Source: a virus. From it: DNA of 35,881 bases. This document shows, piece by piece, positions 2,553-16,751 of this stretch (within the stretch, counting starts at the first letter, position 1; each line of letters opens with the position of its first letter). Made by a program: the position numbers and the translations under genes. Location: the IMG/VR virus record IMGVR_UViG_3300027980_000072, positions 1 to 35,881 of that record; one strand, given 5' to 3'. The notes under the pieces are model-generated. The model did not search any database. It was not told where the DNA came from and was given only the letters and a program-made list of their open reading frames with translations.

Positions 2553-2570
2553 TCTAAATTCCTCCTCTTA

Positions 2571-2871: not shown

Positions 2872-2889
2872 CTCGCTGTTATTTCTAAC

Positions 2890-3942
2890 TTATGCTAGTT
2901 GGTTCTTCCATTTAACGTATATGTTTATGTGACCAGATAATTCGCTTGGCTTAACTCTGATCTCATTAACTCCCGCTCCGACACTTTTGAAGATATCTTT
3001 ATGTTTGTTAGCAATATATTTGTTTGATACACATGCCACATAAAGTCTAAATCCATCCTCTAAAATTTCTAATGGATCGAAAAATTTTGGATCTGTACAT
3101 TCATTATCAATATAAGATTCTTGGATGTTGTATTTACCAGTATTTTCACCAATACACTTATATCTGATAATGCCAGTAGCCATGAATTCAAAATCAACAA
3201 CTTCCATATACATCTTATGGTCTATACTAAAGAAGATATGCCCATTCTGATATTTAACTTCGACTTGATCTAAATATTCCTGTACCAGACCTTTGTGCAC
3301 TAACATTGGCTGTCGAGAATCACTATAGACTAGAATATGTGTGCCCTCATCTTTGATGAATTCATATCTACTGCCTTTGGACAATGGCCCAAATCCCTTA
3401 TGCATTGTCACATATTCTAGACCATCATTGGTAATATTTGCCATTGCATCAATTTCAACTTGATTACCTGATCTATGTGACATTCTTTGATTGACATCAG
3501 CTTTGAGCTTACTGTACATTTCTGCGGTCTTTTTTGATGGACCACAATCTCTACCACGTCCTAATAATTGGATTAGATAACTTACATCCAACAATAATTG
3601 CTCACCAAGGTCATATTGCATAATCTGCGCTAATAATCCCTTTGAAGCTTTGTACATACCTTCTCGTTGTTTACTAGTAAATACCAGATTTGTCTCTATG
3701 TTCATCTTATTGTCCTCCTGATTTTTATTTGTGGTTTCAGCATAATATTCATCCTCTGTTATGCAGTCATGTGATTCTAGATTATCACTATGTTCGCAAC
3801 CATTGCTAGTCTCAGTCCAAGCACTACCACTACCTCTATGGTGCCCAAGCCAGTCTATACCATCTTCATAACAATGTCTGAATTCATATTTGTGTCCACA
3901 ATGTGGACATCTGGCATATTTCCATTCACCACGTGTCTCCAT
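2890..3942 (-). CDS. Unknown protein with N-terminal zinc ribbon and an internal in-frame start
   Basis: 350 residues, function not recognised. Residues 11-30 carry CPHCGHKYEFRHC, probably a zinc ribbon, followed by an acidic, low-complexity segment. A second, perfectly placed ribosome binding site (AGGAGG, 8 bases from the ATG at 3705) lies inside the frame, so a 271-residue protein starting at M80 (MNIETNLVF) is probably also made or may be the main product. The region after M80 looks like one globular domain with no known motif. The outer ATG at 3942 follows GGAGGACAATA and its first bases overlap the stop of the upstream gene (TAATG). This may be two ancestral genes that fused when the separating stop was lost. 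Confidence 0.65.
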   Translation of the reverse strand: METRGEWKYARCPHCGHKYEFRHCYEDGIDWLGHHRGSGSAWTETSNGCEHSDNLESHDCITEDEYYAETTNKNQEDNKMNIETNLVFTSKQREGMYKASKGLLAQIMQYDLGEQLLLDVSYLIQLLGRGRDCGPSKKTAEMYSKLKADVNQRMSHRSGNQVEIDAMANITNDGLEYVTMHKGFGPLSKGSRYEFIKDEGTHILVYSDSRQPMLVHKGLVQEYLDQVEVKYQNGHIFFSIDHKMYMEVVDFEFMATGIIRYKCIGENTGKYNIQESYIDNECTDPKFFDPLEILEDGFRLYVACVSNKYIANKHKDIFKSVGAGVNEIRVKPSELSGHINIYVKWKNQLA

Positions 3943-4124
3943 TATTGTCCTCCTAATTTTATTTTTACAAATTTATCTTTTACTGGCTTGAATGCTTCCT
4001 TTAGATCTTCTTCAAATTCGGTCATAATTTCTCTGCCTTTAATATCATTAGCTGAATGATATAACTTACATCTACATTCTTCACCATCGCAGATTCCCGT
4101 CATACCCCAAACACAATCATTCAT
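3942..4124 (-). CDS. Small cysteine-rich protein of unknown function
   Basis: 60 residues. The N-terminal 20 residues hold four cysteines (CVWGMTGICDGEECRC) that could bind one zinc ion; the rest is a charged helix (EFEEDLKEAFKPVKDKF). The ATG follows GGAGGACAATAAT. Its stop overlaps the next start as TAATG, and its last codons (GGA GGA CAA) double as the ribosome binding site of the next gene. It lies immediately downstream of purZ in the same transcript, but nothing in the sequence ties it to nucleotide metabolism. Confidence 0.6.
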   Translation of the reverse strand: MNDCVWGMTGICDGEECRCKLYHSANDIKGREIMTEFEEDLKEAFKPVKDKFVKIKLGGQ

Positions 4125-4136
4125 ATTATTGTCCTC

Positions 4137-5297
4137 CTAAATCATAGCTTTCTCGTCCGTCACTATCATATCTTGTCTTTCTGCTCCAGTACCAAGTCCT
4201 ATCACAGGACAACCTGTAATATTTGTCACTGTTTTCATGAACTGAGCAGTTTTGCCTGTGATTTCTTCTACTCTACCGAGCATCTTCCAATCAATATATT
4301 GGGCGAAGTTGATGAATATACCAGTTGGTCGGTTGAGCTTGGCTACATAATCCAGTCTGTTCCAATTCATTTCAAATACTCTGCGAGTCTTCTTAGTTAC
4401 TGTTGTTTGCTCACCAAACTCCACTTCATCAGGTGCACCACACTCTGCCTTAACTTGATCCCAGCTTATTTCATTGGAACCATCATAATCGCCTGAGTAC
4501 CGTTCATCACCGAGATTGGTCGAGCTACTAATTCTGATTGGATAAGGTCGCATTACCATATAAACTTCAATATTTGGGTATGTTGGTGATATGCCACAAT
4601 CAGCCAATAATTGACCTGCATGGCATTGTCTAGATGTAGTATGTGGGTAATTCAACCCATAGTTAATATCTAGGTCTGTACCTTGACTGCCCTCAATGAT
4701 CACATCTGTGCCAATATCTAATGATGCGTTGATATGGTCCATATAGTCCTGTATTATTATATTTTCTAGTAATGCCCGACCCTGTTCTATAGACAATCCA
4801 TATAGCCCATGCTCTGGATCTTTCCTATATATGTGTAACTCTTCCATCATGTCTAGGAATAATATTGCTTGTCGCATAGCTTTCTCTGCCAATGCCGCAC
4901 CACATCCTTTGAATGTAGATCCTGACTTCAATTTCTTTTTCTCATAATCGCGATGATGGTCAAGTATAACTGCCGCTCTAGGATGTATATGTACCTTACG
5001 GTCACCCAAGATATCTTTATACTTGATAATCTCATCTGCCAGAATTGATGGTGTAATTGCCGCCCCTGGACCAATTACCAATATTGCATTTGGATTGAGA
5101 ATTGATGTAGGTAGATGCTGTACCATTGTTGTCTCACCATCAACAACTGTGGTATGTCCTGCATTTGACATGAAATTATTGATTGCAATGAATGGTCGAT
5201 TATATTGTGATGCGAACCAATCTACTACCTTACCTTTCCCACATGATCCGGCTTGGGAATCCATTATTATACGCACTGTACCTAGTTTAGAAATCAT
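4137..5297 (-). CDS. purZ: PurZ: N6-succino-2-amino-deoxyadenylate synthase (adenylosuccinate synthetase homologue)
   Basis: 386 residues, clearly of the adenylosuccinate synthetase fold but shorter than bacterial PurA (about 430). Family landmarks are present: the phosphate loop DSQAGSCGKGK (residues 13-23), NAGHT with H48, EGSQGTDLDINYG (PurA EGAQGTLLDIDHG), and a C-terminal TGCPVIGLGTG (PurA TGVPIDIISTG). In the loop, PurA has GDEGKG with a catalytic Asp; here that residue is Ser18 (GSCGKG). Asp-to-Ser at this site is the known mark of phage PurZ, which condenses dGMP with aspartate on the way to 2-aminoadenine (Z) deoxynucleotides. The start follows GGAGGTATAAT, embedded in the last codons of the upstream kinase-like gene, so the two are translationally coupled. 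PurA-type activity on IMP is the alternative; the Ser makes it less likely. Confidence 0.8.
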   Translation of the reverse strand: MISKLGTVRIIMDSQAGSCGKGKVVDWFASQYNRPFIAINNFMSNAGHTTVVDGETTMVQHLPTSILNPNAILVIGPGAAITPSILADEIIKYKDILGDRKVHIHPRAAVILDHHRDYEKKKLKSGSTFKGCGAALAEKAMRQAILFLDMMEELHIYRKDPEHGLYGLSIEQGRALLENIIIQDYMDHINASLDIGTDVIIEGSQGTDLDINYGLNYPHTTSRQCHAGQLLADCGISPTYPNIEVYMVMRPYPIRISSSTNLGDERYSGDYDGSNEISWDQVKAECGAPDEVEFGEQTTVTKKTRRVFEMNWNRLDYVAKLNRPTGIFINFAQYIDWKMLGRVEEITGKTAQFMKTVTNITGCPVIGLGTGAERQDMIVTDEKAMI

Positions 5298-5298
5298 A

Positions 5299-6039
5299 TT
5301 ATACCTCCAAGTGTTTATCTAGATAATTTTTAACCGACGATTGTATTGACTCTGCATTAGTGTGATTACCCACCATTATGGTGCACCATTTAATATTGTC
5401 TAAGAAATTCAATTTGATTTCAGCTTGTCTCATGAGTCTCTCATACATATCTTGCTGTGCTATTGATGTCTCTACACCATATTTGACATCTTGATAGTCT
5501 GGTTTATTGCGTTTTAAAGATTTTTCAAAGAAATCTTCTGTTCCTTTTAGATTAATAATAAGGATGTTAACATCTTGTCTTGTAGCGATATCTCCAAGTA
5601 TTTGACAATAGTTCATTAGTCCATCAAATGGATTATAACCCTTATATAGTACTGCATAAACAGCTTCACTAAAATAACTGCGATCCATGATTACATTGAA
5701 ACAACCCATTGCTACTAAATTCTCGCATCGTTCTAGCGCACCTATATGATATTCAAGCCCAACTTTTTCATGTAGTTCTTTCGATATTGGTGCACTGCCA
5801 GTTAGTCTCATCAGTTCACAATATTTATAGTTATCACGCAACCAATTAGTAAGTGTCGTTTTGCCTACACCCTGAGGTCCCTCTACTATTATAATAAATG
5901 GTTTATGATCCATATTCATCATCTCCTTAAATTGTGCACTGCCTCCAATTCTTCGGCAGATCGGGCATTGTAATAAATTCATATTCAGGGCATTAATCCA
6001 CATTGGCCTAGTGTCACAGGTACTACATATTAGATCCAT
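5299..6039 (-). CDS. P-loop deoxynucleoside/deoxynucleotide kinase-like protein with N-terminal zinc-ribbon extension
   Basis: 246 residues. The kinase core starts at M43 (ATG at 5913), which has its own ribosome binding site (AAGGAG, 9 bases away). Walker A is EGPQGVGKTT, and DRSYFSE later resembles the DRS/DRY motif of thymidylate and deoxynucleoside kinases. The first 42 residues form a separate Cys-x2-Cys pair arrangement (C5, C8, C25, C28), probably a zinc ribbon; their outer ATG at 6039 overlaps the end of thyX and has only a weak binding site. Both start points may be used. Lying between thyX and purZ, it could phosphorylate dTMP and/or dZMP on the way to triphosphates. That substrate is inferred from context. 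Confidence 0.72.
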   Translation of the reverse strand: MDLICSTCDTRPMWINALNMNLLQCPICRRIGGSAQFKEMMNMDHKPFIIIVEGPQGVGKTTLTNWLRDNYKYCELMRLTGSAPISKELHEKVGLEYHIGALERCENLVAMGCFNVIMDRSYFSEAVYAVLYKGYNPFDGLMNYCQILGDIATRQDVNILIINLKGTEDFFEKSLKRNKPDYQDVKYGVETSIAQQDMYERLMRQAEIKLNFLDNIKWCTIMVGNHTNAESIQSSVKNYLDKHLEV

Positions 6040-6727
6040 ATTCTGTCACCACCCACATTGGTAATTGATTGACAAGATCTAAGAAGATCTCTGGTAGATA
6101 TTCATTAACTTCCAGTAGAGCAGGGATCATTACCTCTCTAATCTGTGGATGAGCAAATTCACTAACTGCTCGTTGGCTGAATATTTCTCGCCATTCACGC
6201 ATATTGGCTGTAATTACAATACTAGCTTTAGTTGCATTTGGTAATACCCCACGCGCATACTCTGGTGGTATACCATGATCTATCATCTTATTGTAAATGA
6301 GTTCACTCTGTTCCAGTGCTACATTTAATAGGTGTCTATAATGTTGCATGTCTGTCTCTGTTAATTTATTCATCTTAGGTGAGAGTTCAATTGATGTGCA
6401 TGGGTCTATCACATTGATTTCATTTCCAAATCTGTCACCACCATAGTTACAGAATCTAGTTGATTCCTGACTAAATGATGCTAATCTATGGCGTACCATT
6501 TCATGTGTGATACCTCTGTCAACAATAAATTTAATACTCATGCTACAATGTTCAATTACTGAGTGATGACCCCTCTGCATAATCATTTGCACAAATCCAG
6601 ATGCTGAACCATCCTTAACTAAATGTGTTGATTGATAACACTGTCTACCACAATTCTCAATGTGATTGAGTATCTTGTTACGATCTAACTCAGTTAATAT
6701 CTCATGTGAAGCTGTGATTACTTTCAT
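6023..6727 (-). CDS. thyX: Flavin-dependent thymidylate synthase ThyX
   Basis: 234 residues, a normal length for ThyX. The diagnostic motif RHRx7S is intact: R79-H80-R81 then S89 in RHRLASFSQES. It is preceded by RGHHSVIEH, another conserved FAD-binding element. The enzyme makes dTMP from dUMP with FAD and methylene-tetrahydrofolate. The ATG follows AGGAGGGAATTGAT. The 3' end overlaps the start of the kinase-like gene by 17 bases. With purZ and the kinase it forms a small deoxynucleotide operon, which suggests the phage replaces or reinforces host supply of both bases of the A(Z):T pair. Confidence 0.95.
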   Translation of the reverse strand: MKVITASHEILTELDRNKILNHIENCGRQCYQSTHLVKDGSASGFVQMIMQRGHHSVIEHCSMSIKFIVDRGITHEMVRHRLASFSQESTRFCNYGGDRFGNEINVIDPCTSIELSPKMNKLTETDMQHYRHLLNVALEQSELIYNKMIDHGIPPEYARGVLPNATKASIVITANMREWREIFSQRAVSEFAHPQIREVMIPALLEVNEYLPEIFLDLVNQLPMWVVTEYGSNM

Positions 6728-6728
6728 A

Positions 6729-6800
6729 TCAATTCCCTCCTATACAACATCCCAATAGTCCACCAAATACTACAATTCCAGCTATTACAATAAATAGCAT
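6729..6800 (-). CDS. Membrane microprotein (23 residues)
   Basis: A very short frame of 23 codons starting with ATG at 6800, preceded by AAGGAGGAAATAGA, a full ribosome binding site at normal spacing. The product is almost entirely hydrophobic (MLFIVIAGIVVFGG then LLGCCIGGN), a single membrane-spanning helix with two adjacent cysteines. Its stop lies directly before the thyX start, and its last codons (ATA GGA GGG AAT) supply the thyX ribosome binding site. The gene could work as a small membrane peptide or mainly couple translation to thyX. The strong binding site argues that it is translated. Confidence 0.55.
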   Translation of the reverse strand: MLFIVIAGIVVFGGLLGCCIGGN

Positions 6801-6812
6801 TCTATTTCCTCC

Positions 6813-7097
6813 TTATCTTCTCTCTACCTTGATTTTCAGACATTTAGTACATTTATATGTGTATTGTGTGTCTGTATTACCAGCATAATGATCTGGATTA
6901 AGCTGTTTATCGATCATCACATAGTCATGATCTCCTTCACATATCTTCCATCTGAGTTCCTTTAAATCTCTCATAGCATTGTGTTGCCACATGTCAATTT
7001 TTGGTGACCTATATCTACGTGTAACTAATAATATAGTCAAGAAACATATTAAGATTGTCATTAATGCTAATACAGATATGAATTTACTAATATCCAT
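6813..7097 (-). CDS. Single-span membrane protein with cytoplasmic Cys/His tail
   Basis: 94 residues, not recognised. Residues 7-25 (ISVLALMTILICFLTILLV) form one transmembrane helix, followed by a basic TRRYRSPK stop-transfer sequence. The tail contains H57 and C-x2-C near the end (YKCTKCLK), which could bind metal. The ATG follows AAGGAGGAAGTAAA. It is the second of two membrane genes directly upstream of thyX. No function can be assigned. Confidence 0.65.
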   Translation of the reverse strand: MDISKFISVLALMTILICFLTILLVTRRYRSPKIDMWQHNAMRDLKELRWKICEGDHDYVMIDKQLNPDHYAGNTDTQYTYKCTKCLKIKVERR

Positions 7098-7098
7098 T

Positions 7099-7509
7099 TT
7101 ACTTCCTCCTTATTATTATATCTAATTCATCTCTTAGAAACTTGAGATATGTTAGCTCATCTTGTGTTGGTTGATACCCTTTTGTATTTAGCTGTCTATA
7201 ATGCCATACAAGTTCTGTTAGATCAGTATTGTTGTTAATTTTGTCGGCTGTTCTAAAATCTACCTTTATGCGCAGTAGTCTTGGTATTGCCATCGTTCTA
7301 TTACGTGCTATTGATTGCCGCGATACGTTCTGTTTAACTGCCGCCTCTGCACATGTCATTCCTTGTGTATAGTCAACAATATCGCGTCTCTCAGCTCTAG
7401 TAAATTGATCATACTGCTGTTGTACAGACAGAGAGCCATAGGCTTTCGCCACATGACTCCTCTCTTTTGGGCTATCGAATCTCTCTTTGCGTCCAGGCTT
7501 CTTGCACAT
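7099..7509 (-). CDS. Helix-turn-helix DNA-binding protein
   Basis: 136 residues. After a basic N-terminus (KKPGRKER), residues about 40-72 read as a helix-turn-helix: TRAERRDIVDYTQG then MTCAEAAVKQNVSRQSIARN, where a turn precedes a probable recognition helix. This resembles phage regulatory proteins and sigma region 4-like folds. It is probably a transcriptional regulator acting on phage promoters. The target cannot be read from the sequence. The ATG follows AGGAGGTAATT, and the stop lies beside the next gene, so it is within the long leftward transcript. Confidence 0.6.
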   Translation of the reverse strand: MCKKPGRKERFDSPKERSHVAKAYGSLSVQQQYDQFTRAERRDIVDYTQGMTCAEAAVKQNVSRQSIARNRTMAIPRLLRIKVDFRTADKINNNTDLTELVWHYRQLNTKGYQPTQDELTYLKFLRDELDIIIRRK

Positions 7510-7518
7510 AATTACCTC

Positions 7519-8178
7519 CTATAGCTCATAACATCCAAGGTCAATATCGTTCTCGGGATTATATCTACCCATAATATAATCTGGTCTGCGCTGATCAGGT
7601 TGCGGGCATACTGCCAATATACGCCATCCTTGATTCATTAATCCCTGTAAATCTTGGGTGCATACATCTGTTTTAAATCCTACTTGATTTATGTTTAACA
7701 TACCGAAGTTCGGCACGTGTACTTCACATTTTTGATTGAATTCCACACTCTTATCAAATTTCCGCATAACCGATTGCATTTCGTCAAATTGGCTTTTTAA
7801 TTTATCTGCAATATCAGTGAATGCCGCAACTCGCATATCTATTGCTTTTTCGCTAGTCATTGGCAATCCTCGCATTGAGAATTTGATTTCTGGATATACT
7901 GTCATCAATACTTGTGGATCTGCGATATACTCATTTCCTGATTTAATTAGATATGAATCGCAGTATCGTGCTAATTTCTTATCCTTTTCAGGATCATTAG
8001 CAATAGCCTCATCTAACGTGGCACTCCAGCTGTAAAATTGTTGGGGTTTGCTCCATTCTCCATCTTCAAATACCTGTACTCGTTGTTCACTATCTATGCT
8101 TTCGCCTACTATTTTTGATAGCTCATCTAATTTCTCTTTACTAACTGATGTCTCACTAAATGTAATTCTTGCTAACAT
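7519..8178 (-). CDS. Unknown protein, 219 residues
   Basis: The frame is open from 8211, but the ATG at 8178 is preferred because GAGGAGGAGAATT sits right before it and the upstream codons encode that binding site. The product (starting MLARITFSETSVS) has no motif I recognise. A predicted helical segment at about residues 115-150 (SEKAIDMRVAAFTDIADKLK) is followed by a C-terminal part with scattered cysteines and WRILAVCPQPDQRRPDY. It lies between the HTH gene and the secreted hydrolase in the same orientation. Confidence 0.7.
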   Translation of the reverse strand: MLARITFSETSVSKEKLDELSKIVGESIDSEQRVQVFEDGEWSKPQQFYSWSATLDEAIANDPEKDKKLARYCDSYLIKSGNEYIADPQVLMTVYPEIKFSMRGLPMTSEKAIDMRVAAFTDIADKLKSQFDEMQSVMRKFDKSVEFNQKCEVHVPNFGMLNINQVGFKTDVCTQDLQGLMNQGWRILAVCPQPDQRRPDYIMGRYNPENDIDLGCYEL

Positions 8179-8233
8179 AATTCTCCTCCTCGATTTATAA
8201 GAATGACACACCCAATGTCATCTTATTTGTTAA

Positions 8234-9040
8234 TTATTGCTTAATCCAATTCATTTCATCTACTAGTAAATCATGATTTGATTCAAGTTGATAGAAGTAA
8301 TGTGGATTATTGCCTAAATCATTTGGCGTCCCAATTTTTGAGTTAGTTGACAATCCAATCTTTGAATTCTGCATTGCTACCCACATTCCATCAAATGGTT
8401 CCATTCCTAAACTAACTGGTGCATACAGTATAGATACTGGATTTGATCCGAAGCCATCATATTCTTGTGCTCTTTTAAATGATGATCTAATTTCGTCCCA
8501 ATCACCTTCTGCTGTAAATTGTCCAGTATACATTGCTACAAAATCAGGGGCTACTACCTCAAACATCGGAATAAATGCATCATTCTGGTATGGATGCGAT
8601 GTTTCTACCATTAAGGCACCATCAAATAGTTCAGGATAAAACTCTTCATATGATTGAACTATAATACCGCCGATGCTGTGTGCAAAGAAATAATTCTCTT
8701 CAACACCAATCTCTAGTACTAATTTATGTAGTGCTCTTGCTTGTCTCTGACAAGTGAGTGGTTGATCACCCAATGTAGAATCACCAAGTCCACGTCTGTC
8801 ATAGGTTACTACTACAGTATCTGCTGTTACAAACTTGGCTGGTAATTCTCCTAATGCTTCATCAGCATCTCCATAGCCCGTTACCATGAAAATTGCTTTA
8901 GTCGCACTCTCAAGACTTCCATAGACCTTGTAGCTCAGCTCTGCATTGCCATACTCGAATGTTGACTCTGTGGCAAAGCTACCCATTGACATACTGAACA
9001 TTAATACCATAATCATTAATAATGCTAACTTTCTTTTCAT
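8234..9040 (-). CDS. Secreted alpha/beta hydrolase
   Basis: 268 residues from the ATG at 9040, chosen because AAGGAG lies 8 bases upstream and it gives a textbook signal peptide: MKRK, then LALLMIMVLMFSMSMG, with likely cleavage after SFA. The frame continues upstream to 9088, but that start would bury the signal. The mature part is an alpha/beta hydrolase: oxyanion region VTGYGD, DRRGLGDS, nucleophile elbow AHSIGG (S122; the first Gly of GxSxG is Ala-His here), and NHD near the end with H256 as catalytic base. It is probably an esterase or lipase-like enzyme exported by the host Sec pathway. A secreted hydrolase is unusual cargo in a phage replication region. The substrate is unknown. Confidence 0.8.
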   Translation of the reverse strand: MKRKLALLMIMVLMFSMSMGSFATESTFEYGNAELSYKVYGSLESATKAIFMVTGYGDADEALGELPAKFVTADTVVVTYDRRGLGDSTLGDQPLTCQRQARALHKLVLEIGVEENYFFAHSIGGIIVQSYEEFYPELFDGALMVETSHPYQNDAFIPMFEVVAPDFVAMYTGQFTAEGDWDEIRSSFKRAQEYDGFGSNPVSILYAPVSLGMEPFDGMWVAMQNSKIGLSTNSKIGTPNDLGNNPHYFYQLESNHDLLVDEMNWIKQ

Positions 9041-9071
9041 AACTGCATCTCCTTTTGTTTTCAAGTTTAAT

Positions 9072-9350
9072 TTATTTGGGTGTGTCATTGTTATCCTCCT
9101 TCATAGTCCTAAAATGCTTGCGCAATGCCATGCCCATTTGTGCTGGCCCAACTTTAGGTCTATAAATCTTACTAATAAGATCGACAAGTTCAATTGCTGT
9201 AACACCTGTAACAATTGCTACGGGCATAATTGCTTTACATATACTTATTGCCTGATCTTCATCATACATCGATGAATTTATAATCAAATTCACGTCCGCA
9301 TTGCTATATCCTAAATGTTCTGCATATTCATATAATTCTTCTCTAGTCAT
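9072..9350 (-). CDS. Unknown small protein with UBA-like N-terminal helices
   Basis: 92 residues starting MTREELYEYAEHLG. The N-terminal 40 residues look like a small three-helix bundle (helix, GYS turn, helix, SMYDEDQAISICKAI). A hydrophobic helix follows (MPVAIVTGVTAIELVDLI) and then a basic tail with KHFRTMKED. No family is recognised. The ATG follows AGGAGGATAACA. The same GGAGGATAACAATG string recurs at this gene's 3' end, so a short alternative start for the next gene overlaps here. Confidence 0.6.
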   Translation of the reverse strand: MTREELYEYAEHLGYSNADVNLIINSSMYDEDQAISICKAIMPVAIVTGVTAIELVDLISKIYRPKVGPAQMGMALRKHFRTMKEDNNDTPK

Positions 9351-9360
9351 TGTTATCCTC

Positions 9361-9579
9361 CTATAAATATATATTAAATTTAATAATTATTCCATATGCT
9401 AATATTCTATTATCATTTATCCAATTTATAAACTCATTATAGTCAGTCTCTGACTTATATGATGCTAGGACAATCGTTACTATATGATTAACATAGTCTT
9501 CATGGGCTTCAATGAATTCTATATCTAATTTTCTACATTTCTTCTTAATATTATCAAGTGTAATTGCATTCTTATTCAA
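9361..9579 (-). CDS. Small protein of unknown function, TTG start
   Basis: 72 residues. The only start consistent with the ribosome binding site is TTG at 9579, 9 bases after GGAGG, which itself lies inside the final codons of the 3D-domain frame (ATG GAG GTA). The product is rich in Asn, Ile and Asp, with a charged helix (LDNIKKKCRKLDIEFIEAHEDY) and a strand-like C-terminus. It is not recognised. The low-strength start and overlap suggest coupled, low-level translation. Confidence 0.55.
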   Translation of the reverse strand: MNKNAITLDNIKKKCRKLDIEFIEAHEDYVNHIVTIVLASYKSETDYNEFINWINDNRILAYGIIIKFNIYL

Positions 9580-9874
9580 TAATATATACCTCCATCTTAT
9601 CGGACCAATACATCTTTAATTGGTTGCCGCCTACGTAAACATCTATATCACTATTATCAATTGCACCGCCTCTATCATGACACTCGAATATGCCTGTTCC
9701 GTTTAGCCAAGCTAAGTTCGGTATCCATACCATTGTACCAAATGGAAAGGAAGGACCCATAGCGATAGTCCTTCCATCTTCTACATATCTACCGCTGGCG
9801 GTTATACCATATACTGGGTGATCTGGATATTTTTCACACGATTCATATGATAGGTCGTACGCGGTGACATGCAT
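9572..9874 (-). CDS. 3D-domain cell-wall protein, probably made as a -1 frameshift extension of the upstream membrane protein
   Basis: 100 codons encoding almost exactly one 3D (Asp-Asp-Asp) domain, the double-psi beta-barrel related to MltA/RlpA peptidoglycan-acting enzymes. Family hallmarks: VTAYDLSYESCEKYPDHP, YGITASGRYVEDG, PFGTMVWIP, and CHDRGGAIDNSDIDVYVGG with D67, D76 and D78. It has no signal peptide and no ribosome binding site before its ATG (AAAAAAGTA precedes it), unlike nearly every neighbour. Its frame is -1 relative to the upstream coiled-coil gene, which ends in A_AAA_AAG TAA exactly at this ATG. A -1 shift gives ...NATKK-V-MHVTAYDLS..., recreating the membrane anchor-coiled coil-3D layout of chromosomal proteins. 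Independent start by TAATG coupling is the alternative. Confidence 0.8.
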   Translation of the reverse strand: MHVTAYDLSYESCEKYPDHPVYGITASGRYVEDGRTIAMGPSFPFGTMVWIPNLAWLNGTGIFECHDRGGAIDNSDIDVYVGGNQLKMYWSDKMEVYIIE

Positions 9875-10380
9875 TACTTTTTTGTAGCATTTTTAAATAA
9901 ATTTAATGTTTCAGTCCAGTCATTCATGATTTTCTGTTGTGTTTCAATTTTGGTTTCAGCCAATTTTAAATCTAGTTTTAGATCCTTTATTTGCTCCTGT
10001 GATTCTATAACCTCACCCTCATGTTGAGTGATCATTTGGTCAATTATATTCTGATAGGCAATTTCCTGAATTTCTATTCGCTGATCTTTTATATATACTG
10101 AGAATAACAATAATATAATAATTAATGCCATCATAATCGTAATTGGGTCGATTATCCATCGCTTCTTTCTTTTGAATGGAATAGGTCTGATCCAGTCATG
10201 GAGTGTATCATAATTGAAGTATACTTTGCCATCTGTACATTGCACAAATAACTTCCTACCAGCATCATCAAATCCAGTTATTTCGCCCTGTTCGCCAGCA
10301 TAGTCACCCTGTAGAACCCATACTTTCTGAAATAGATTCAGATCACGACTTGCATTAATCTTCTTCGGCTTGCGTTTCAT
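9874..10380 (-). CDS. KOW-like/membrane/coiled-coil protein; 0-frame product of the 3D-domain frameshift pair
   Basis: 168 residues from ATG 10380 (GAGGAGGATTACT just upstream; the frame is open further but the upstream codons encode the binding site). Residues about 18-50 (VWVLQGDYAGEQGEITGFDD) resemble a KOW/SH3-like barrel. Residues 77-97 form one transmembrane helix (IIDPITIMMALIIILLLFSV), preceded by RKKR. Residues 99-155 are a strong coiled coil. The N-terminus is probably inside and the coiled coil outside the membrane. The frame stops at TAA directly after A_AAA_AAG, where a -1 shift would add the 3D domain and give a 269-residue surface-anchored cell-wall enzyme. It probably remodels peptidoglycan during infection or lysis. 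An internal KOW-like domain on such a protein is unusual. Confidence 0.72.
   Translation of the reverse strand: MKRKPKKINASRDLNLFQKVWVLQGDYAGEQGEITGFDDAGRKLFVQCTDGKVYFNYDTLHDWIRPIPFKRKKRWIIDPITIMMALIIILLLFSVYIKDQRIEIQEIAYQNIIDQMITQHEGEVIESQEQIKDLKLDLKLAETKIETQQKIMNDWTETLNLFKNATKK
9877..9883 (-). other. Slippery heptamer A_AAA_AAG for programmed -1 ribosomal frameshifting
   Basis: Read on the minus strand in the frame of the 168-residue membrane protein: ACA AAA AAG TAA TGC ATG. The heptamer A AAA AAG has the correct phase (X XXY YYZ), is the same one used in E. coli dnaX and several IS elements, and is followed directly by the stop codon. Slipping back one base puts ribosomes in the frame of the 3D domain. 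I see no strong upstream Shine-Dalgarno stimulator; a downstream structure could form around GCATG and CGTACG but is not obvious. Confidence 0.65.
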
Positions 10381-10549
10381 AGTAATCCTCCTCATTGAGT
10401 TCACCCTCTGTAATCTCCTCAATTATTCTAGTTGTCATCTCAGCGCAGTAGCTACCCTCACATAAATTATGAGGTCCAGTATTGAATTTAGTGTCGTAAT
10501 GATTCTGACAGTACTCGCATACTGCCTCATCTATTAGTATTTTAGCCAT
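10355..10549 (-). CDS. Small zinc-binding protein, unknown function
   Basis: 64 residues from ATG 10549 (AAGGAGG about 10 bases upstream; the frame is open further upstream without a good start). It contains CEYCQNHYDTKF and LCEGSYC, that is two cysteine pairs about 20 residues apart, which could bind one zinc ion in a treble-clef or ribbon-like fold. A long acidic tail follows (EEITEGELNEEDYYETQ). The 3' end overlaps the next gene by 26 bases. No function is recognised. Confidence 0.6.
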   Translation of the reverse strand: MAKILIDEAVCEYCQNHYDTKFNTGPHNLCEGSYCAEMTTRIIEEITEGELNEEDYYETQAEED

Positions 10550-10862
10550 CCTTATTATGCCTCCTTCTATTAAACCCGACAATTCTATCAATTATTGTCT
10601 CGATACTTAACTCAATTTTAAAGAAATGATCTTCCCTTAATAGCGAACCACATTTTGATGTCTGAGTTATATTAATACTAGATGGATGCATAAAAATAAT
10701 CTCGAATTCTTCTGTATTTGGATATATTTTACACATTAACATTTGTCCATTGTCCATTATTCTACCCCAAGTTTCGGTGACATGATCTGCGCTGTAATTA
10801 TACAAACTATAATCTCTTGATTTCATTATGTCTTGAATATGGTGTAATTGTATCTCGGTCAT
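10542..10862 (-). CDS. Unknown small protein
   Basis: 106 residues starting MTEIQLHHIQDIM; the ATG follows GGGAGGTGTAGAT. It has a mixed alpha/beta-looking sequence with CKIYPNTEEFEIIFMHP in the middle and a basic end (GFNRRRHNKDG). I recognise no family. It lies directly downstream of the large Fe-S nuclease gene, 2 bases away, and its 3' end overlaps the next gene, so it belongs to the same transcript. Confidence 0.6.
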   Translation of the reverse strand: MTEIQLHHIQDIMKSRDYSLYNYSADHVTETWGRIMDNGQMLMCKIYPNTEEFEIIFMHPSSINITQTSKCGSLLREDHFFKIELSIETIIDRIVGFNRRRHNKDG

Positions 10863-10864
10863 AT

Positions 10865-12592
10865 CTACACCTCCCTAATTTGTGGTGCATTATATCGCTT
10901 CTTCTTAGCATGCATTACATTAAATTTGAATTCAGGATTCTTATCAAGATATTGTTCTACTTTATTACGTTTTATTGTAACCATATTTTTCATCGCTGTT
11001 ACTTCGCCAGCTAAGAAGAATGCATCAAATAATTTATATGAGTCATATCCATCTGTATGTGGTGATTCTAATATTAATTGCTTACCATCTTCTAGCACAG
11101 TTGGTTTTCCAGCTATCGTATTTTGCTCAATTGCCGCTCTAACTGCATCATTTGCCTGTTTTCTAATATCACCAGCAATTCTTTCGACTGTAGCCGCCAT
11201 ATTCTTTGCACTATAGAGTGTGTCTATATCAGATGCATCTAAGTTTATTGATTGTAGATATAGTGTTGGATTTGCAAGTACGCTATTGTATTTTCTACAT
11301 TTAGCCTTACCTGAGCACCACGGGCAAAGATTATTGAGTGTTGCTGGGAATGTCTGTGCATTTTTAATCATATGCCACATACTGCTTATATAATCTAACA
11401 CATTCTGTATATCCACATCATCATTAACTCTGCAAGGTTGCCATCCAAATCTAAACATTTCATATCCTGTACGCCATTCATCAACCTCAGGATACCAAAT
11501 TCTACATATCGCTTCATATGCTTTCATCTGTAATGAATTATCTAGTTGTGATCTGGTAAATGCCTGTCTGTTTGATTTATAATCCTTAATTAAACCAACG
11601 GTCTTACCATCGATCTTTTCCTTATAAATGGCAATAAGGTCAATTTTGGCCCCAAAGTGTGCATCACCTAATTTTCCACGGAACTCAGGTTCAACTGCTA
11701 TCACTCTGTATGGTCTATTTTGATTAATTGGATTACGTCTAAAGTGGTCTTTTACTAAATTTAGTCCTTCTTCATATTTTTCTAATCCTAGGTCGGTCTC
11801 AGGTGGGCAATATTTAGCATATATCTCTTTATATGTTTTCTCAAGGCACATAATCATGCCAGTCTTCATGAACATATCTTCCATTGCTTCACAGGTATCA
11901 TGACATATCGTACCCAGCCAACTATATTGGTTGTCGTCGCCTTCTGATGGGTCAGTGACTAGCATATAATCATTAAGTAAAGCACTCAAACATTGATTTG
12001 CTTTTTTGATCTTAGATACTGATAGGTAATCTAGATCGAAATTTATCGGTTTCCACATTGCTGGTATTCGCTCAATTGTTCCAGTTGGTGTTATGATCGT
12101 AGCTTCAAGCTCTCCTCGGTTATACCTCAATGAAACCCGAACTGGATCGAAAGGGGCGGCACCGTCTGGTATTGCTAATATCGGCAAAAAGCGGTTCACA
12201 TCGGGTTCGAAGCCATCAACAAATTCTTTTAGCTGTTTTATATGGTCATCTATAAGAATGTAATCTGACATGTCAATTTTTGGTTGCTCACCGCGATTAA
12301 GTAAAAACTTATCGTATTCATCATGTAATAGATCATCATCATGACTTATTGAATCTATCTTACTCCAATTATCTATAGCCTCTTGCCCAGTAGATGTTGA
12401 TATTATCCCAGTCTGTGTATCTTCTGTTGTTATTCTTTTAATTTTAGCTGGTGAGATTTTAAGTCCTGGGTCTGCCTTCTTCTTACATTCTAAGCACATT
12501 TGATTATTGCCAGCATATGCTGATACTTCCATAACTGCGCCACAGGTATTACAGTTAATATTCTTCTTCTTACCCTTTACTGCTGTTCCCAT
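10865..12592 (-). CDS. RecB/AddB/Cas4-type PD-(D/E)XK exonuclease with predicted Fe-S cluster and N-terminal zinc ribbon
   Basis: 575 residues from ATG 12592, directly after AGGAGGAATATA; the frame is open to 12613, but those codons encode the binding site. An N-terminal zinc ribbon (C14, C17, C33, C36) comes first. The nuclease domain has GTICHDTCE (His of motif I), AKIDLIAI (D318), LIKDYKSN (D337, K339) and QMKAYEAI (Gln-Tyr motif). One cysteine before the nuclease (NQCLSALL) and three after it (CPWCSGKAKC) match the four ligands of the 4Fe-4S cluster in Cas4 and AddB nucleases. It probably trims DNA ends during recombination or host DNA breakdown. No helicase domain is fused. A link to CRISPR is not suggested by the context. 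Confidence 0.78.
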   Translation of the reverse strand: MGTAVKGKKKNINCNTCGAVMEVSAYAGNNQMCLECKKKADPGLKISPAKIKRITTEDTQTGIISTSTGQEAIDNWSKIDSISHDDDLLHDEYDKFLLNRGEQPKIDMSDYILIDDHIKQLKEFVDGFEPDVNRFLPILAIPDGAAPFDPVRVSLRYNRGELEATIITPTGTIERIPAMWKPINFDLDYLSVSKIKKANQCLSALLNDYMLVTDPSEGDDNQYSWLGTICHDTCEAMEDMFMKTGMIMCLEKTYKEIYAKYCPPETDLGLEKYEEGLNLVKDHFRRNPINQNRPYRVIAVEPEFRGKLGDAHFGAKIDLIAIYKEKIDGKTVGLIKDYKSNRQAFTRSQLDNSLQMKAYEAICRIWYPEVDEWRTGYEMFRFGWQPCRVNDDVDIQNVLDYISSMWHMIKNAQTFPATLNNLCPWCSGKAKCRKYNSVLANPTLYLQSINLDASDIDTLYSAKNMAATVERIAGDIRKQANDAVRAAIEQNTIAGKPTVLEDGKQLILESPHTDGYDSYKLFDAFFLAGEVTAMKNMVTIKRNKVEQYLDKNPEFKFNVMHAKKKRYNAPQIREV

Positions 12593-12605
12593 TATATTCC
12601 TCCTA

Positions 12606-12878
12606 TTATTCAATAAATTGTATTAAGATGAATTTATCAATTGGTACATCAATTACTTGATTTATGTTATTATAAACTCTTATGATTCCATCAACTCTAT
12701 ATCGATCCGGTGTCTTAATAATCTTTGATATCTCAGATTTAATAAATGGCGATTCAGTAGGATCCTCAATAAACTCAAAATTTAACATAAAGTCTATTAT
12801 TTTATATCCAATCATTTTTGTTATACCTAATTGATCATCTGTGACATTTGCTACTGCCATTGATTTTGTACTATCCAT
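12606..12878 (-). CDS. Unknown small protein, tandem paralogue of the next gene upstream
   Basis: 90 residues. Near the N-terminus it reads MAVANVTDDQLGITK, closely matching FAVALTTDLRLGITK in the adjacent upstream gene at 12888-13133. The rest is strand-rich, with FIKSEISKIIKTPDRYRVDG, and has no catalytic motif. The ATG follows ATAGGAGGTAAAC. The stop lies inside the ribosome binding site of the Fe-S nuclease gene, so translation is probably coupled. Confidence 0.6.
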   Translation of the reverse strand: MDSTKSMAVANVTDDQLGITKMIGYKIIDFMLNFEFIEDPTESPFIKSEISKIIKTPDRYRVDGIIRVYNNINQVIDVPIDKFILIQFIE

Positions 12879-12887
12879 GTTTACCTC

Positions 12888-13133
12888 CTATATTGACATT
12901 ATATCAAATAATGATACTGTTAACCTAATCCTAGTACCACGGTCACATATTATTTCTATTGATTCTGGTATACTACCCACTCCATTAACGACCCCTGTCA
13001 TATATCCAACACTATTGATTATATTATTATAAATTGCAAAGATTGGATATGTCTCGTCCTTTGTAATACCCAATCGTAAATCTGTTGTCAATGCTACTGC
13101 AAATAATCCATCAATTCTAGAATGTTGTGGCAT
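12888..13133 (-). CDS. Unknown small protein, tandem paralogue of the next gene downstream
   Basis: 81 residues. Shares the motif FAVALTTDLRLGITK with the downstream gene, pointing to an old tandem duplication; the remaining residues (IYNNIINSVGYMTG, CDRGTRIRLTVSLFD) look like beta strands. The ATG follows GGAGGCACATAAAG and lies within the last codons of the zinc-ribbon gene (17-base overlap). A related string, TNKELGIS, occurs near the N-terminus of the 15050-15610 product. Function unknown. Confidence 0.6.
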   Translation of the reverse strand: MPQHSRIDGLFAVALTTDLRLGITKDETYPIFAIYNNIINSVGYMTGVVNGVGSIPESIEIICDRGTRIRLTVSLFDIMSI

Positions 13134-14004
13134 CTTTATGTGCCTCCTTTGTCTCCTGTAATTCTTCTTCTATATCTTTAATCTTTTGTTGTAATTCTAG
13201 ATTGAGTGTTTGTTGATCAGTAATTCCTATATCCTCACCTTTTCTTTTAAGATGTAAGTCAAAATCTATTTTACGATACCACTTCGGAAGAACCGCCTCC
13301 GGTACTTCTATATTGTTGTCATCTAATAAATCAAGTAGTATGCCTATACAATTTTCTTCGATCGTTTCCTTTTTATTGGAAATACCACGCATAGCTTCAC
13401 CTGTATATGTGAATGACAGATTAGCATTAGTAGGTTTAATTAAATGTTTGGTCTGTTCTGATAGACTCATAGTAATCAAACAATGAGGACATTGTAATTG
13501 CATTACACATCCATACTTGTTTGTATCCATAATAGTAAGTGGTGTCATTTTCTTCTGACAGTTTGGACATTGAATATACTGCAGATTAGGATTTGCTATG
13601 ATTACAGGATTGATTGCAAAATCCTCAATTGGGATCATCTTTTTCGATAGTCTATTTATATCTACTTTGACTTTAATGCTGGAGGTCTTAGCTTCGCTTG
13701 TTGGTCTGCATTTAGGACATAATGCACCCTGTACCTTACCAAATCTATGTGTTAAGAACTTTTCTCCACACTCTGAGCATTCTACTTCCTTAGATCCACT
13801 AGTTGGATTAACTGGTGCTTTGGATCTTTTCTTCTTCTCAGATGCTTTCTTTTCTGCCTCAGCCAATCTCTCCGGGTCGGCTGGTATATCATGAGATTTA
13901 CAATGATCACATCGTACTTTTAGACCTGACATAAATAGACTGACTGTTACCTCCTTGCCACATGATAAACAGGGTTCTATTTTTGTTTTCCCTTTAGTAC
14001 TCAT
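13117..14004 (-). CDS. Triple zinc-ribbon protein with C-terminal coiled coil
   Basis: 295 residues. Three four-cysteine zinc ribbons are visible: C12-C15-C32-C35, C76-C79-C96-C99, and C146-C149-C172-C175. A basic Lys/Ala-rich linker (EKKASEKKKRSKAP) separates the first two. Residues 265-295 form a charged coiled coil. Such arrays usually bind nucleic acid or RNA polymerase. With the sigma-like gene just upstream in the same transcript, a transcription role is plausible, but that is inference. The ATG follows AGGAGGCGGCAAATA, and the start overlaps the stop of the upstream gene. Confidence 0.7.
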   Translation of the reverse strand: MSTKGKTKIEPCLSCGKEVTVSLFMSGLKVRCDHCKSHDIPADPERLAEAEKKASEKKKRSKAPVNPTSGSKEVECSECGEKFLTHRFGKVQGALCPKCRPTSEAKTSSIKVKVDINRLSKKMIPIEDFAINPVIIANPNLQYIQCPNCQKKMTPLTIMDTNKYGCVMQLQCPHCLITMSLSEQTKHLIKPTNANLSFTYTGEAMRGISNKKETIEENCIGILLDLLDDNNIEVPEAVLPKWYRKIDFDLHLKRKGEDIGITDQQTLNLELQQKIKDIEEELQETKEAHKDATTF

Positions 14005-14212
14005 TATTTGCCGCCTCCTGTATTTTGATATATTTCGTTATAGCCGCATCACAAGACCAATTATATAAATTAATATATTCACCACTTAGACATTTTCTTC
14101 CAGACAATGGACATTCTGAGCATTTAAGTAATTGAGTTATTGAATTATTAAAATTATTCGACTTTATGCTGTATTGTAACATTTTCTTTAGCTCGTCTAC
14201 TGTCTTTTTCAT
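13994..14212 (-). CDS. Small cysteine-containing protein of unknown function
   Basis: 72 residues beginning MKKTVDELKKMLQ. A central CSECPLSGRKC plus a later WSCDAA gives four cysteines that could bind metal. The ATG follows GGAGGCGGCAA, which also encodes the GGGK C-terminus of the upstream sigma-like protein, so start and stop overlap (ATGA). Its own 3' end encodes a near-identical GGAGGCGGCAAATAATG junction for the next gene. Function unknown. Confidence 0.58.
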   Translation of the reverse strand: MKKTVDELKKMLQYSIKSNNFNNSITQLLKCSECPLSGRKCLSGEYINLYNWSCDAAITKYIKIQEAANNEY

Positions 14213-15045
14213 TTGCCGCCTCCTATTATATTATCTATGAAAGTAAATTTCTTGTCTGCTGAAATTGTTTTTGATATTAAAGTATCATCTATTTGTTCAA
14301 TATCATCTAGATATTTTCTAAATCTTTTTCGTAATTTAGTTAAATTGAAATTTACATTTACTGCAGATGTATCCCATTCCTTTGCAATTTGCTTCAAGTA
14401 ATTCTCTACATCTGGGTTAGTCGTATTTATATCTCTGCGGATCATTGCATCAAATAATCTCGTTACGTTTGTTCCCTCTTTAAGTAAATCCTCAAATCCT
14501 ACAATCAATGCCTCAACTGTATCATCAAGAATCATTGTGTTGAGATCATCATATTCATCTACTAAGTTATCAAATGTGATTTCATTCTTGTCTGAAACCA
14601 TATCTGTAGCTACATCTGTACTACCGCATTTCTTACATACATAATTATTATCTACTATGTTTAATCTTGATTTATTTCCACATGTTCTACATGTTTGCAT
14701 TGTACCTTGATTAATATGTTTCTTTACATATCTTTGCGTTTGCCATGTACCAGATTGCAAAATAAACAGGAATGGTTCTCCGACATCTAATTTTGCTTTG
14801 GTAAGTCCAATTGCACAGCCAATCATGAATTCTTGTCTGATATCATCGTCTTCTAATAGACAATTCTTACTAGTAAATCTACTAATTCTACGTCTCATAT
14901 GGTGTTGCTTTATTTCTTCTAATAGAATATCTGTTGCGATCGTGTTATCATTCTGCGCATTAAATATTAATACATTTAATAATTCACTATATTTTGCTTT
15001 ATCTGTTGTTCTGAACTCATCCAATTGTTTTCTCGTATTTGTCAC
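14209..15045 (-). CDS. Divergent sigma-70-like factor with inserted zinc ribbon
   Basis: 278 residues from GTG 15045, set by GGAGGTATAATTAA. Residues about 50-112 resemble sigma region 2: a basic helix, LLEDDDIRQEFMIGCAIGLT (like DLxQEGxIGLxxA of sigma-70), then FLFILQSGTWQTQRYVKKHI, matching the -10-reading helix. A four-cysteine zinc ribbon (C119, C122, C137, C140) follows, which ordinary sigma factors lack. Residues about 212-246 (VENYLKQIAKEWDTSAVNVN) resemble region 4. It probably redirects host RNA polymerase to middle or late promoters, such as those before the plus-strand head genes, whose upstream region lacks a good vegetative promoter. Similarity is weak and read by eye. Confidence 0.58.
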   Translation of the reverse strand: MTNTRKQLDEFRTTDKAKYSELLNVLIFNAQNDNTIATDILLEEIKQHHMRRRISRFTSKNCLLEDDDIRQEFMIGCAIGLTKAKLDVGEPFLFILQSGTWQTQRYVKKHINQGTMQTCRTCGNKSRLNIVDNNYVCKKCGSTDVATDMVSDKNEITFDNLVDEYDDLNTMILDDTVEALIVGFEDLLKEGTNVTRLFDAMIRRDINTTNPDVENYLKQIAKEWDTSAVNVNFNLTKLRKRFRKYLDDIEQIDDTLISKTISADKKFTFIDNIIGGGK

Positions 15046-15049
15046 TTAA

Positions 15050-15610
15050 TTATACCTCCAGTATCTTATTAAAGTTTGTCTTATTGAATTTTCTAACTCC
15101 ACTGTCAGTTCGTATTTCCTTTAAATTGGTCATCTGTGAGGATCTAATAAAAGCGACTAATGTAATTTGTCCTGTAATTCTTACTCGACATTCAGCAGAT
15201 TTAATACTTCCGTTTTTCGCGGCTGATTGTACATCAACTATCTTATATTCAATTTTCAAGTCGTCTCTGTCTTTTATCAATTCTTCTACTAATGCCACTG
15301 TGTGTTCTTCAAACACTTGCGATGTCTTCTTCTGTGTTGGTTTCTTTTTACCATCTGAACTACCATCAAATTCAAGCTCTAATCCATCATCTGATGTTAC
15401 TAGTTTATCTATTAATGCTACTCTAGCTACAGACTTGCAGTACTCACAATATTGACTGCTAGTCAGTTCTGTTGTTAAACAATCTAGATTGCTAATACCT
15501 AATTCTTTATTAGTAATTGTTGTTACTCTCACTGCTGATCTATAGAATGATATGTAACATGTATTGTCTTCAACTCTTCCTGTTATCTTGTTTACTATAA
15601 TAGAATCCAT
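15050..15610 (-). CDS. Unknown protein, most divergent member (D) of the SGQ gene family
   Basis: 186 residues. The C-terminal half matches the layout of three other early proteins (genes at 15733, 18624 and 21669): a helix, then strands (ECRVRITGQITLVAF), then IRSSQMTNLKEI in place of the [KV]SGQx[STK]KP signature. Residues 55-58 hold CEYC. An N-terminal AVRVTTITNKELGIS resembles the LGITK motif of the genes at 12606 and 12888. The ATG follows TTGGAGATGCA. Family membership is by eye. Function unknown. Confidence 0.6.
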   Translation of the reverse strand: MDSIIVNKITGRVEDNTCYISFYRSAVRVTTITNKELGISNLDCLTTELTSSQYCEYCKSVARVALIDKLVTSDDGLELEFDGSSDGKKKPTQKKTSQVFEEHTVALVEELIKDRDDLKIEYKIVDVQSAAKNGSIKSAECRVRITGQITLVAFIRSSQMTNLKEIRTDSGVRKFNKTNFNKILEV

Positions 15611-15685
15611 TGCATCTCCAATCTCTTAATTCAACCTTATTGTAATATCTAAAAGTTTAACTTGTAAATCTACGGAAATCAATTT

Positions 15686-15712
15686 TTTGGGCACACACTA
15701 GGTGCACCCAAA
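15686..15712 (-). terminator. Intergenic hairpin, weak terminator or processing signal
   Basis: In the gap between the SGQ family genes A and D, UUUGGGUGCAC pairs with GUGUGCCCAAA over 11 bp with two G-U pairs and a short CUA loop. It is followed by AAAAUUG rather than a U-run on the minus strand, so it is more likely a 3' end stabiliser or weak terminator than a strong stop. Its core resembles the hairpin at 1322-1340. Confidence 0.45.
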
Positions 15713-15732
15713 TTTAATGGTTATTGACTTAC

Positions 15733-16539
15733 TTATTCTGTTACTGGTGCCTCAGCAGTTCCAACTTCTGGATCTGTAGCTTCAACAGCTTCATCTTCCT
15801 TAACAGGCTTAACTTTTACAGGTTTCTTTGGAAGTACTTCAAGATGAGTCATTTCTTTAAGAAGTTCTGTAGCTGTGAATGCAATGTCTTCACGTAATTT
15901 TCTTGGTTTAGACATTTGACCCGATTTTAATGCCACTTCAATTACTAAATCTGCCATCTTGTCGCCAACACCTACTGAGAATTGAACCTTGGCTGTAGCC
16001 GCTTTGATATTACCATTACCATAATTTTCGATAATATCAACAACAACCTGATCTTCTTCGCAAATTGAATAAACAATCTCTGAACCTTCTGGCAATAATT
16101 CTTTTGAAACGTAACTAGCCGATTCTTTTTCAAATCTTTCATCAAATGAATGTAACTTTTGACGTAACATTGTAATAGCAGTACCTGCTACTAATGCAAC
16201 TGAGTCGTATTTTGCAGGAAATTTATTTTCTTCCTTGCGGCGATCAGTTGGATCAAATACATAACCAAATTTAGCGATATTAATGATCATGAAACTTTTA
16301 AATGCTTCTTTGCGATCTGTCGCTGAGTATGATTTTGCTTCAATACCCTTTTCTTCGTCCTTCTTGATGTCTATTGGCATTGCGAATCCCAATTCTACAA
16401 CCATTTCATCATCAGATTGAACCTCAAGTAATTTTGTGTTTGTACGGAATAAACTTGCAATAGCAACGCCATCGCCAATCATTCTAACTGTGACTTTGTT
16501 ACAACGTGCTAAATCTTTCATTGCGTCATTTGCGTTCAT
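15733..16539 (-). CDS. Unknown early protein, SGQ family member A
   Basis: 268 residues from ATG 16539, preceded by AAGGAGGAATCACC; the open frame extends to 16569 but without a binding site. The signature KSGQMSKP (residues 205-212) lies after the strand ADLVIEVAL and before a helix ATELLKEM. The same layout occurs in the products at 18624, 21669 and, weakly, 15050. A long helix follows TAITMLRQKLHSFDERFE, and the C-terminus is acidic and Pro-rich (VKEDEAVEATDPEVG). The gene has a strongly structured leader (16581-16715), which suggests post-transcriptional control. It has no recognised enzyme motif. Multiplicity and early position hint at a host-takeover or DNA-binding role, but that is a guess. 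Confidence 0.72.
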   Translation of the reverse strand: MNANDAMKDLARCNKVTVRMIGDGVAIASLFRTNTKLLEVQSDDEMVVELGFAMPIDIKKDEEKGIEAKSYSATDRKEAFKSFMIINIAKFGYVFDPTDRRKEENKFPAKYDSVALVAGTAITMLRQKLHSFDERFEKESASYVSKELLPEGSEIVYSICEEDQVVVDIIENYGNGNIKAATAKVQFSVGVGDKMADLVIEVALKSGQMSKPRKLREDIAFTATELLKEMTHLEVLPKKPVKVKPVKEDEAVEATDPEVGTAEAPVTE

Positions 16540-16580
16540 GGTGATTCCTCCTTTTATTTTTAAGACCATTTGCCTTATCA

Positions 16581-16715: not shown

Positions 16716-16751
16716 TTATCAAATCTTAGAATATTGGGTTTGTGTGATCTG

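What the first reader, a model, noticed from the sequence alone, without database searches (positions are those of the whole stretch)
9572..10380. A_AAA_AAG -1 frameshift site joining a membrane coiled-coil protein to a 3D-domain cell-wall enzyme
Seen: the upstream frame ends ACA AAA AAG TAA, with the slippery heptamer in correct phase and the stop right behind it. The 3D-domain frame is exactly -1, starts at the overlapping ATG, lacks a ribosome binding site and has no signal peptide. A shift yields a 269-residue membrane-coiled coil-3D protein, the layout of known chromosomal 3D-domain proteins, while non-shifted ribosomes make the anchor alone. Programmed frameshifting in a phage cell-wall enzyme would be unusual; in phages it is known mainly from tail chaperones.
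Basis: partly seen in the sequence, partly recalled or inferred. Interest (0 to 1): 0.8.

Follow-up and report, generated by a model that had tools for sequence, protein, structure and literature searches.

The report
Possible frameshifted phage cell-wall enzyme
A phage gene for a membrane-anchored cell-wall-cutting enzyme is split into two reading frames exactly at a known ribosome slip sequence, so the enzyme is probably made only when ribosomes slip, although every known relative keeps it in one unbroken frame and a damaged gene is not excluded.

Summary
On the minus strand a membrane/coiled-coil ORF (10380-9874) ends ACA AAA AAG TAA, and a 3D-domain ORF (9874-9572) starts in the -1 frame at the overlapping ATG. 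The two frames share only about 18 bases, which hold an in-phase A_AAA_AAG.

New evidence:
(1) All 120 distinct homologues examined encode the 3D domain and its upstream segment in one frame.
(2) The 'start' ATG is an inherited internal Met: the closest phage relatives read M-K/R-V-T-A-Y-D-L-S-Y-E-S-C without interruption. Separate initiation was therefore not the ancestral design.
(3) Its ATG has no Shine-Dalgarno (SD) sequence, unlike the other 53 ORFs.
(4) In-phase A_AAA_AAG occurs at 3 of 10,565 codons; one is here.
(5) A 13-bp stem begins 3 nt downstream, stronger than synonymous shuffles (z -2.8; about 1% of windows).
(6) The same phage has A_AAA_AAG in the frame overlap before its tape-measure gene.

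A canonical -1 programmed frameshift making a membrane-tethered MltA/YuiC-type muralytic enzyme is the best explanation (about 0.6). It is not conserved: the relatives are unsplit, and no second genome covers the junction. A one-base loss in the A-run, real or an assembly error, remains the main rival (about 0.25).

The parts
10387..10393 (-). Shine-Dalgarno GAGGAGG of the anchor ORF
   Evidence: anti-SD pairing -11.5 kcal/mol at ATG 10380
9874..10380 (-). 0-frame anchor ORF, 168 aa: cytoplasmic KOW-like segment, basic stretch, membrane segment, coiled coil, ends NATKK*
   Evidence: KOW only below cut-off, E 0.04; the longer ORF call to 10422 starts at a TTG without a clear SD
10090..10146 (-). 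membrane segment (PITIMMALIIILLLFSVYI) preceded by FKRKKR, so N-in/C-out by the positive-inside rule
   Evidence: sequence; no topology predictor was run; homologues also carry a hydrophobic segment upstream of 3D in the same frame
9877..9883 (-). slippery heptamer A_AAA_AAG, in phase, directly before the stop
9872..9876 (-). TAATG: 0-frame stop TAA (9876-9874) overlapping the ATG (9874-9872) of the -1 frame; the ATG matches an internal Met of single-frame homologues
9782..9873 (-). predicted extended stem-loop starting 3 nt after the heptamer (13 bp with one bulge; arms 9873-9861 and 9795-9782)
   Evidence: -27.4 kcal/mol; synonymous-shuffle z -2.7 to -2.85; 5th of 388 windows
9572..9874 (-). 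-1 frame ORF, 100 aa, 3D (MltA/YuiC-like) domain; putative catalytic Asp at ORF residue 78, second Asp at 67, orienting Thr at 4; the third '3D' Asp is Gly40
   Evidence: residue roles from the YuiC structure paper PMC4499186

Best explanation
Ribosomes translate the anchor ORF from ATG 10380. Most stop at TAA 9876-9874 and release a membrane/coiled-coil protein without an enzyme. A fraction slip -1 on A_AAA_AAG, helped by the stem that begins 3 nt downstream, and read on through GTA-ATG-CAT... to make a 269-residue protein. Its 3D domain then lies outside the membrane, tethered by the coiled coil, where it can cut peptidoglycan glycan strands. Shown: the anatomy, the homology to single-frame fusions, the missing SD, the unusual heptamer and the stem prediction. 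Inferred: that slippage happens and how often, the membrane topology, the enzymatic activity, and that the enzyme-free anchor dilutes the enzyme in mixed coiled-coil assemblies.
For: All 116 distinct homologues scored, and four more, have the upstream segment and 3D in one frame (one, L107, is cut by its contig end); 110 of the 116 have a hydrophobic stretch upstream by a simple cut-off. The three closest phage relatives (50-55% identity, L142-L144) are unbroken membrane-3D proteins reading CKMKVTAYDLSYESC or ITMRVTAYDLSYESC. Met sits at the 'start' position in 23 of 26 YD-type homologues and in 33 of 116 overall. The 3D ATG has no SD (+1.4 kcal/mol), while every other ORF has a start with an SD-like pairing of -5.9 kcal/mol or better. 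In-phase A_AAA_AAG is rare (3 per 10,565 codons). Only 0.4% of simulated random one-base deletions in this phage's genes leave A_AAA_AAG in the overlap, and 0.005% leave it flush with the stop. The downstream structure exceeds synonymous shuffles, p 0.006-0.024 depending on window length, and is 5th of 388 windows. Near-identical contigs of the same phage carry an in-phase A_AAA_AAG in the -1 overlap before the tape-measure gene, the usual site of tail-chaperone frameshifting. A_AAA_AAG is among the three most efficient motifs with stimulators in E. coli (PMC4066793), and was tentatively named as the tail slip site in Paenibacillus larvae phages (PMC6003738).
Against: No relative has the split, so there is no conservation of the heptamer or the stem. 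Only one assembly covers the junction. No upstream SD-like stimulator was seen. The stem starts 3 nt after the heptamer, whereas 5-8 nt is usual (PMC4066793). The stem's 100-nt window was chosen after seeing the fold; by plain energy it is only at the 6-7th percentile of windows and dinucleotide-shuffle z -1.2 to -1.8. Slippage in the true host is unknown.
Confidence: 0.6

Rival explanations
1. The gene is an ordinary single-frame membrane-3D gene with a small indel in or near the A-run: a real loss-of-function mutation in this phage population, or an assembly error. The heptamer is the footprint of the indel-prone homopolymer.
For: All relatives are single-frame. The break lies in one of the longer A-runs of the window (nine 6-base and one 7-base A/T runs). 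Only one assembly covers it.
Against: No indel in about 16 kb compared with contig G001 or in about 11 kb compared with G002, and no other conserved gene of the window appears broken. Runs of seven A or T are very rare here (one). A random one-base deletion seldom gives this exact geometry, and it would not explain the downstream stem.
Confidence: 0.25
2. Two separately translated genes: the 3D ORF is started by termination-reinitiation at TAATG, giving a 100-residue soluble 3D domain.
For: Stop and start overlap by one base, a classic coupling arrangement, and GeneTack work found that coupling and frameshifting can both occur at such junctions (PMC3711429). The 100-aa ORF alone models as a complete 3D fold (pLDDT 90).
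Against: The ATG is an inherited internal Met. The ORF has no SD, whereas the other one-base overlaps in this phage have one. The product would lack any export signal for a wall enzyme. The start codon is partly inside the predicted stem.
Confidence: 0.12
3. Polymerase slippage on the A-run produces mixed transcripts, some in the fused frame.
For: Slippage at long poly(A) runs is known in AT-rich endosymbionts (PMC5009743).
Against: The run is only six A; efficient slippage usually needs longer runs (general knowledge).
Confidence: 0.03

Closest known systems
Sps/3D (MltA-fold) proteins: YuiC, YocH, YorM of Bacillus; 3D proteins of Listeria phage LIS04, Bacillus phage SP-15, Geobacillus virus E3; IMG/VR loci L142-L144
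   Same: Same catalytic domain (YuiC by sequence and fold) and the same layout of membrane or signal segment, linker or coiled coil, then 3D
   Different: All are in one reading frame; here the domain is in the -1 frame. One of the three name-giving aspartates (YuiC D129) is Gly, a position also changed in several phage homologues. An extra KOW-like N-terminal segment is present.
dnaX and IS3-type -1 frameshift signals with A_AAA_AAG (E. coli)
   Same: Same heptamer in phase, stop close behind, downstream stem
   Different: No upstream SD-like stimulator seen; not conserved; here the shifted product is the longer, enzyme-bearing one, unlike dnaX; untested
Phage tail assembly chaperone G/GT frameshift
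   Same: Short and long products from a -1 shift near the end of ORF1; this phage's own candidate pair also holds A_AAA_AAG
   Different: Different protein, in the early or nucleotide-metabolism region
[quoted passage not shown] CTP1L-type endolysins with a secondary translation product
   Same: A phage wall enzyme made through a non-standard two-ORF or two-product arrangement
   Different: CTP1L uses an internal start; mechanism details of the 1994 case were not readable here; different domains

Membership tests
-1 programmed ribosomal frameshift gene | X_XXY_YYZ heptamer in phase inside the overlap of the 0 and -1 frames | tested here: met
   A_AAA_AAG 9883-9877
-1 programmed ribosomal frameshift gene | Downstream stimulatory structure | tested here: inconclusive
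   13-bp stem, synonymous-shuffle p 0.006-0.024, but 3-nt spacer and only the 6-7th percentile by raw energy
-1 programmed ribosomal frameshift gene | Site conserved in related genes | tested here: not met
   All homologues single-frame; no other IMG/VR contig has the junction pattern
-1 programmed ribosomal frameshift gene | Trans-frame protein produced | not testable with these tools
   needs a reporter assay or mass spectrometry
3D (PF06725) / Sps muralytic protein | 3D domain above the curated cut-off | tested here: met
   26.8 bits against 23.8; YuiC fold match
3D (PF06725) / Sps muralytic protein | Three conserved aspartates | tested here: not met
   Two of three: D67 and D78 match YuiC D151 and catalytic D162; the D129 position is Gly40. 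Phage members LIS04, SP-15 and KLEB27-1 also lack it
3D (PF06725) / Sps muralytic protein | Export signal or membrane anchor in the same polypeptide | tested here: inconclusive
   Only if the -1 shift occurs
Translationally coupled gene pair | Downstream start that is a start codon in its own right, usually with at least a weak SD | tested here: not met
   No SD; the ATG is an inherited internal Met. Reinitiation without an SD cannot be excluded.

The most novel reading that the evidence does not exclude
A phage lineage has put a membrane-tethered MltA/3D muralytic enzyme under -1 ribosomal frameshift control, so that each enzyme-bearing chain is made together with an excess of enzyme-free anchor chains of the same coiled coil, fixing a low dose of wall-cutting activity during early infection.
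Probability: 0.45. Interest if true: 0.6.

Novelty: new member of a known kind. Interest (0 to 1): 0.42.

Why it matters
If true, it extends phage ribosomal frameshifting from tail and capsid genes to an anchored cell-wall enzyme, and gives a simple way to set the dose of a potentially self-lethal hydrolase. The anatomy makes it directly testable with one reporter construct and one peptide. It also shows that an overlapping ATG can be an inherited internal methionine, so stop/start overlap alone should not be read as translational coupling.

Tried and rejected
Nothing was found for: near-identical relatives of the 3D ORF, the anchor ORF or the adjacent nuclease in IMG/VR; the 3D or anchor gene in the two near-identical contigs (they do not cover window 4737-24491); the exact junction motif across IMG/VR; anchor-ORF relatives among phages; megablast relatives. 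Rejected: 'the ATG is evidence of a separate gene', because Met is the commonest residue there in fused homologues. Rejected: gross assembly inaccuracy, because there were no indels in about 16 kb of overlap. Considered: an upstream SD stimulator; none was seen by eye. The host tRNA check was only indicative: one tRNA-Lys (UUU) was found in Sedimentibacter saalensis, a guessed host relative; the search was not exhaustive.

Full report
OBSERVATION. Everything lies on the minus strand. The anchor ORF starts at ATG 10380 behind GAGGAGG and ends ...AAT GCT ACA AAA AAG TAA (stop 9876-9874). The 3D ORF runs 9874-9572 in the -1 frame and its ATG overlaps the stop by one base. The -1 frame is closed by a stop at 9895-9893, so a shift is only possible within about 18 bases; four in-phase heptamer positions exist there and one is A_AAA_AAG. 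In-phase A_AAA_AAG occurs 3 times in 10,565 codons, all X_XXY_YYZ heptamers 35 times. The expected number here is therefore 0.0008 and 0.013; after allowing for about ten -1 junctions in the window it is still unusual for A_AAA_AAG.

WHAT THE PROTEINS ARE. The 100-residue ORF holds a 3D domain (PF06725, 26.8 bits against a 23.8 cut-off) and is related to B. subtilis YuiC by sequence (E 1.5e-7). A model of the ORF (pLDDT 90) finds YuiC first and E. coli MltA next in the PDB. Using the YuiC paper (PMC4499186), YuiC T91, D151 and catalytic D162 correspond to ORF residues T4, D67 and D78; the D129 position is Gly40, and it is also changed in several phage members. The anchor ORF has a KOW-like segment (below cut-off), a basic stretch, one hydrophobic segment and a coiled-coil-like tail. 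By the positive-inside rule its C-terminus lies outside, the right side for a wall enzyme (inference; no topology predictor was run).

HOMOLOGUES. Searches with 3D alignments gave 38 viral and 80 genomic loci and four more viral ones, three of them closer. All 116 distinct sequences scored have the upstream segment in the same open frame (one is cut by its contig end), and 110 pass a simple hydrophobicity cut-off there. The three nearest (L142-L144, 50-55% identity) are unbroken membrane-3D proteins. At the position of the window's 'start' Met, single-frame homologues have Met in 33 of 116 overall and in 23 of 26 of the YD-type subfamily; L142-L144 read CKMKVTAYDLSYESC or ITMRVTAYDLSYESC. The ATG is thus best explained as an inherited internal codon of a once-continuous gene.

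INITIATION. Allowing each ORF its best start, 52 of the other 53 ORFs pair with the anti-SD at -6 kcal/mol or better and the remaining one at -5.9; the median is -10.7. For the 3D ORF such a value (-6.0) comes only from an ATG inside the domain. Its own ATG scores +1.4. The other one-base overlaps in this phage do carry SDs. Separate initiation is therefore unlikely to be efficient, though reinitiation without an SD cannot be excluded.

STRUCTURE. A rod-like stem (13 bp with one bulge, then an inner 9-bp helix) begins 3 nt after the heptamer. Its 98-115 nt energy exceeds synonymous-codon shuffles with p 0.006-0.024. Among 388 windows of 35 genes tested the same way it ranks 5th. By raw energy it is only in the 6-7th percentile. 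The window length was chosen after seeing the fold, and the spacer is shorter than the usual 5-8 nt (PMC4066793), so this is moderate support.

SAME PHAGE, KNOWN SITE. Two near-identical IMG/VR contigs extend the window past its right end. Just before the tape-measure gene they hold a 162-aa ORF and a -1 ORF of 79 aa, whose frame is open from L133:410. The overlap contains an in-phase A_AAA_AAG at L133:425, plus T_TTA_AAG (482) and T_TTA_AAA (509). By position this is the tail-chaperone pair; PHROGs do not name it. Which heptamer is used is unknown, but it suggests that this phage's host can slip on A_AAA_AAG.

RIVALS. A lost base in the A-run of an ordinary gene would give the same picture. 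Against it: no indel in about 16 kb of overlap with another assembly, no other broken gene seen, and random one-base deletions leave A_AAA_AAG in the overlap in 0.4% and flush with the stop in 0.005% of cases. Homopolymer-biased indels would raise those figures, and no other contig covers the junction, so this rival keeps about 0.25. Translational coupling keeps about 0.12.

PLACE AMONG KNOWN THINGS. The mechanism would be canonical -1 frameshifting: C_CCA_AAG, G_GGA_AAG and A_AAA_AAG are the strongest motifs in E. coli with stimulators (PMC4066793). In 3,679 annotated phages, 2,397 of 2,476 joined frameshift genes are tail chaperones (PMC10885494). A two-ORF phage lysin was reported before (Shearman 1994, via PMC10885494, PMC3111421 and PMC4777826). 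So the kind is known; the gene would be new.

VERDICT. Observation confirmed; one protein from two frames strongly supported; programmed frameshifting likely but unproven and not conserved.

Noticed in passing
window 4137-5297 (-), with 5299-6039 and 6023-6727: PurZ-like adenylosuccinate synthetase (phrog_1211, E 1.7e-63; nearest Bacillus phage vB_BpsS-140, 39.6%) beside a thymidylate-kinase-like protein and ThyX: possibly a 2-aminoadenine (Z) genome.
   Followed up: partly
L133 33-757 (contig G001, just past the window's right end): Probable tail-chaperone -1 pair before the tape measure, with three in-phase heptamers including A_AAA_AAG in the overlap.
   Followed up: partly
window 8234-9088 (-): Alpha/beta hydrolase with an apparent signal peptide (PF12146), a secreted lipase/esterase-like phage protein three ORFs downstream of the 3D ORF.
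   Followed up: no
L004, L006, L007, L016, L039: In other phages the 3D gene also sits next to thyX or DNA polymerase genes, not in a lysis cassette, hinting at an early-infection role.
   Followed up: no
window 1-4736 and 24492-35881: Contig IMGVR_UViG_3300005589_000047 matches both stretches (one mismatch, no gaps) and the two records together imply a circular map of about 67 kb.
   Followed up: partly
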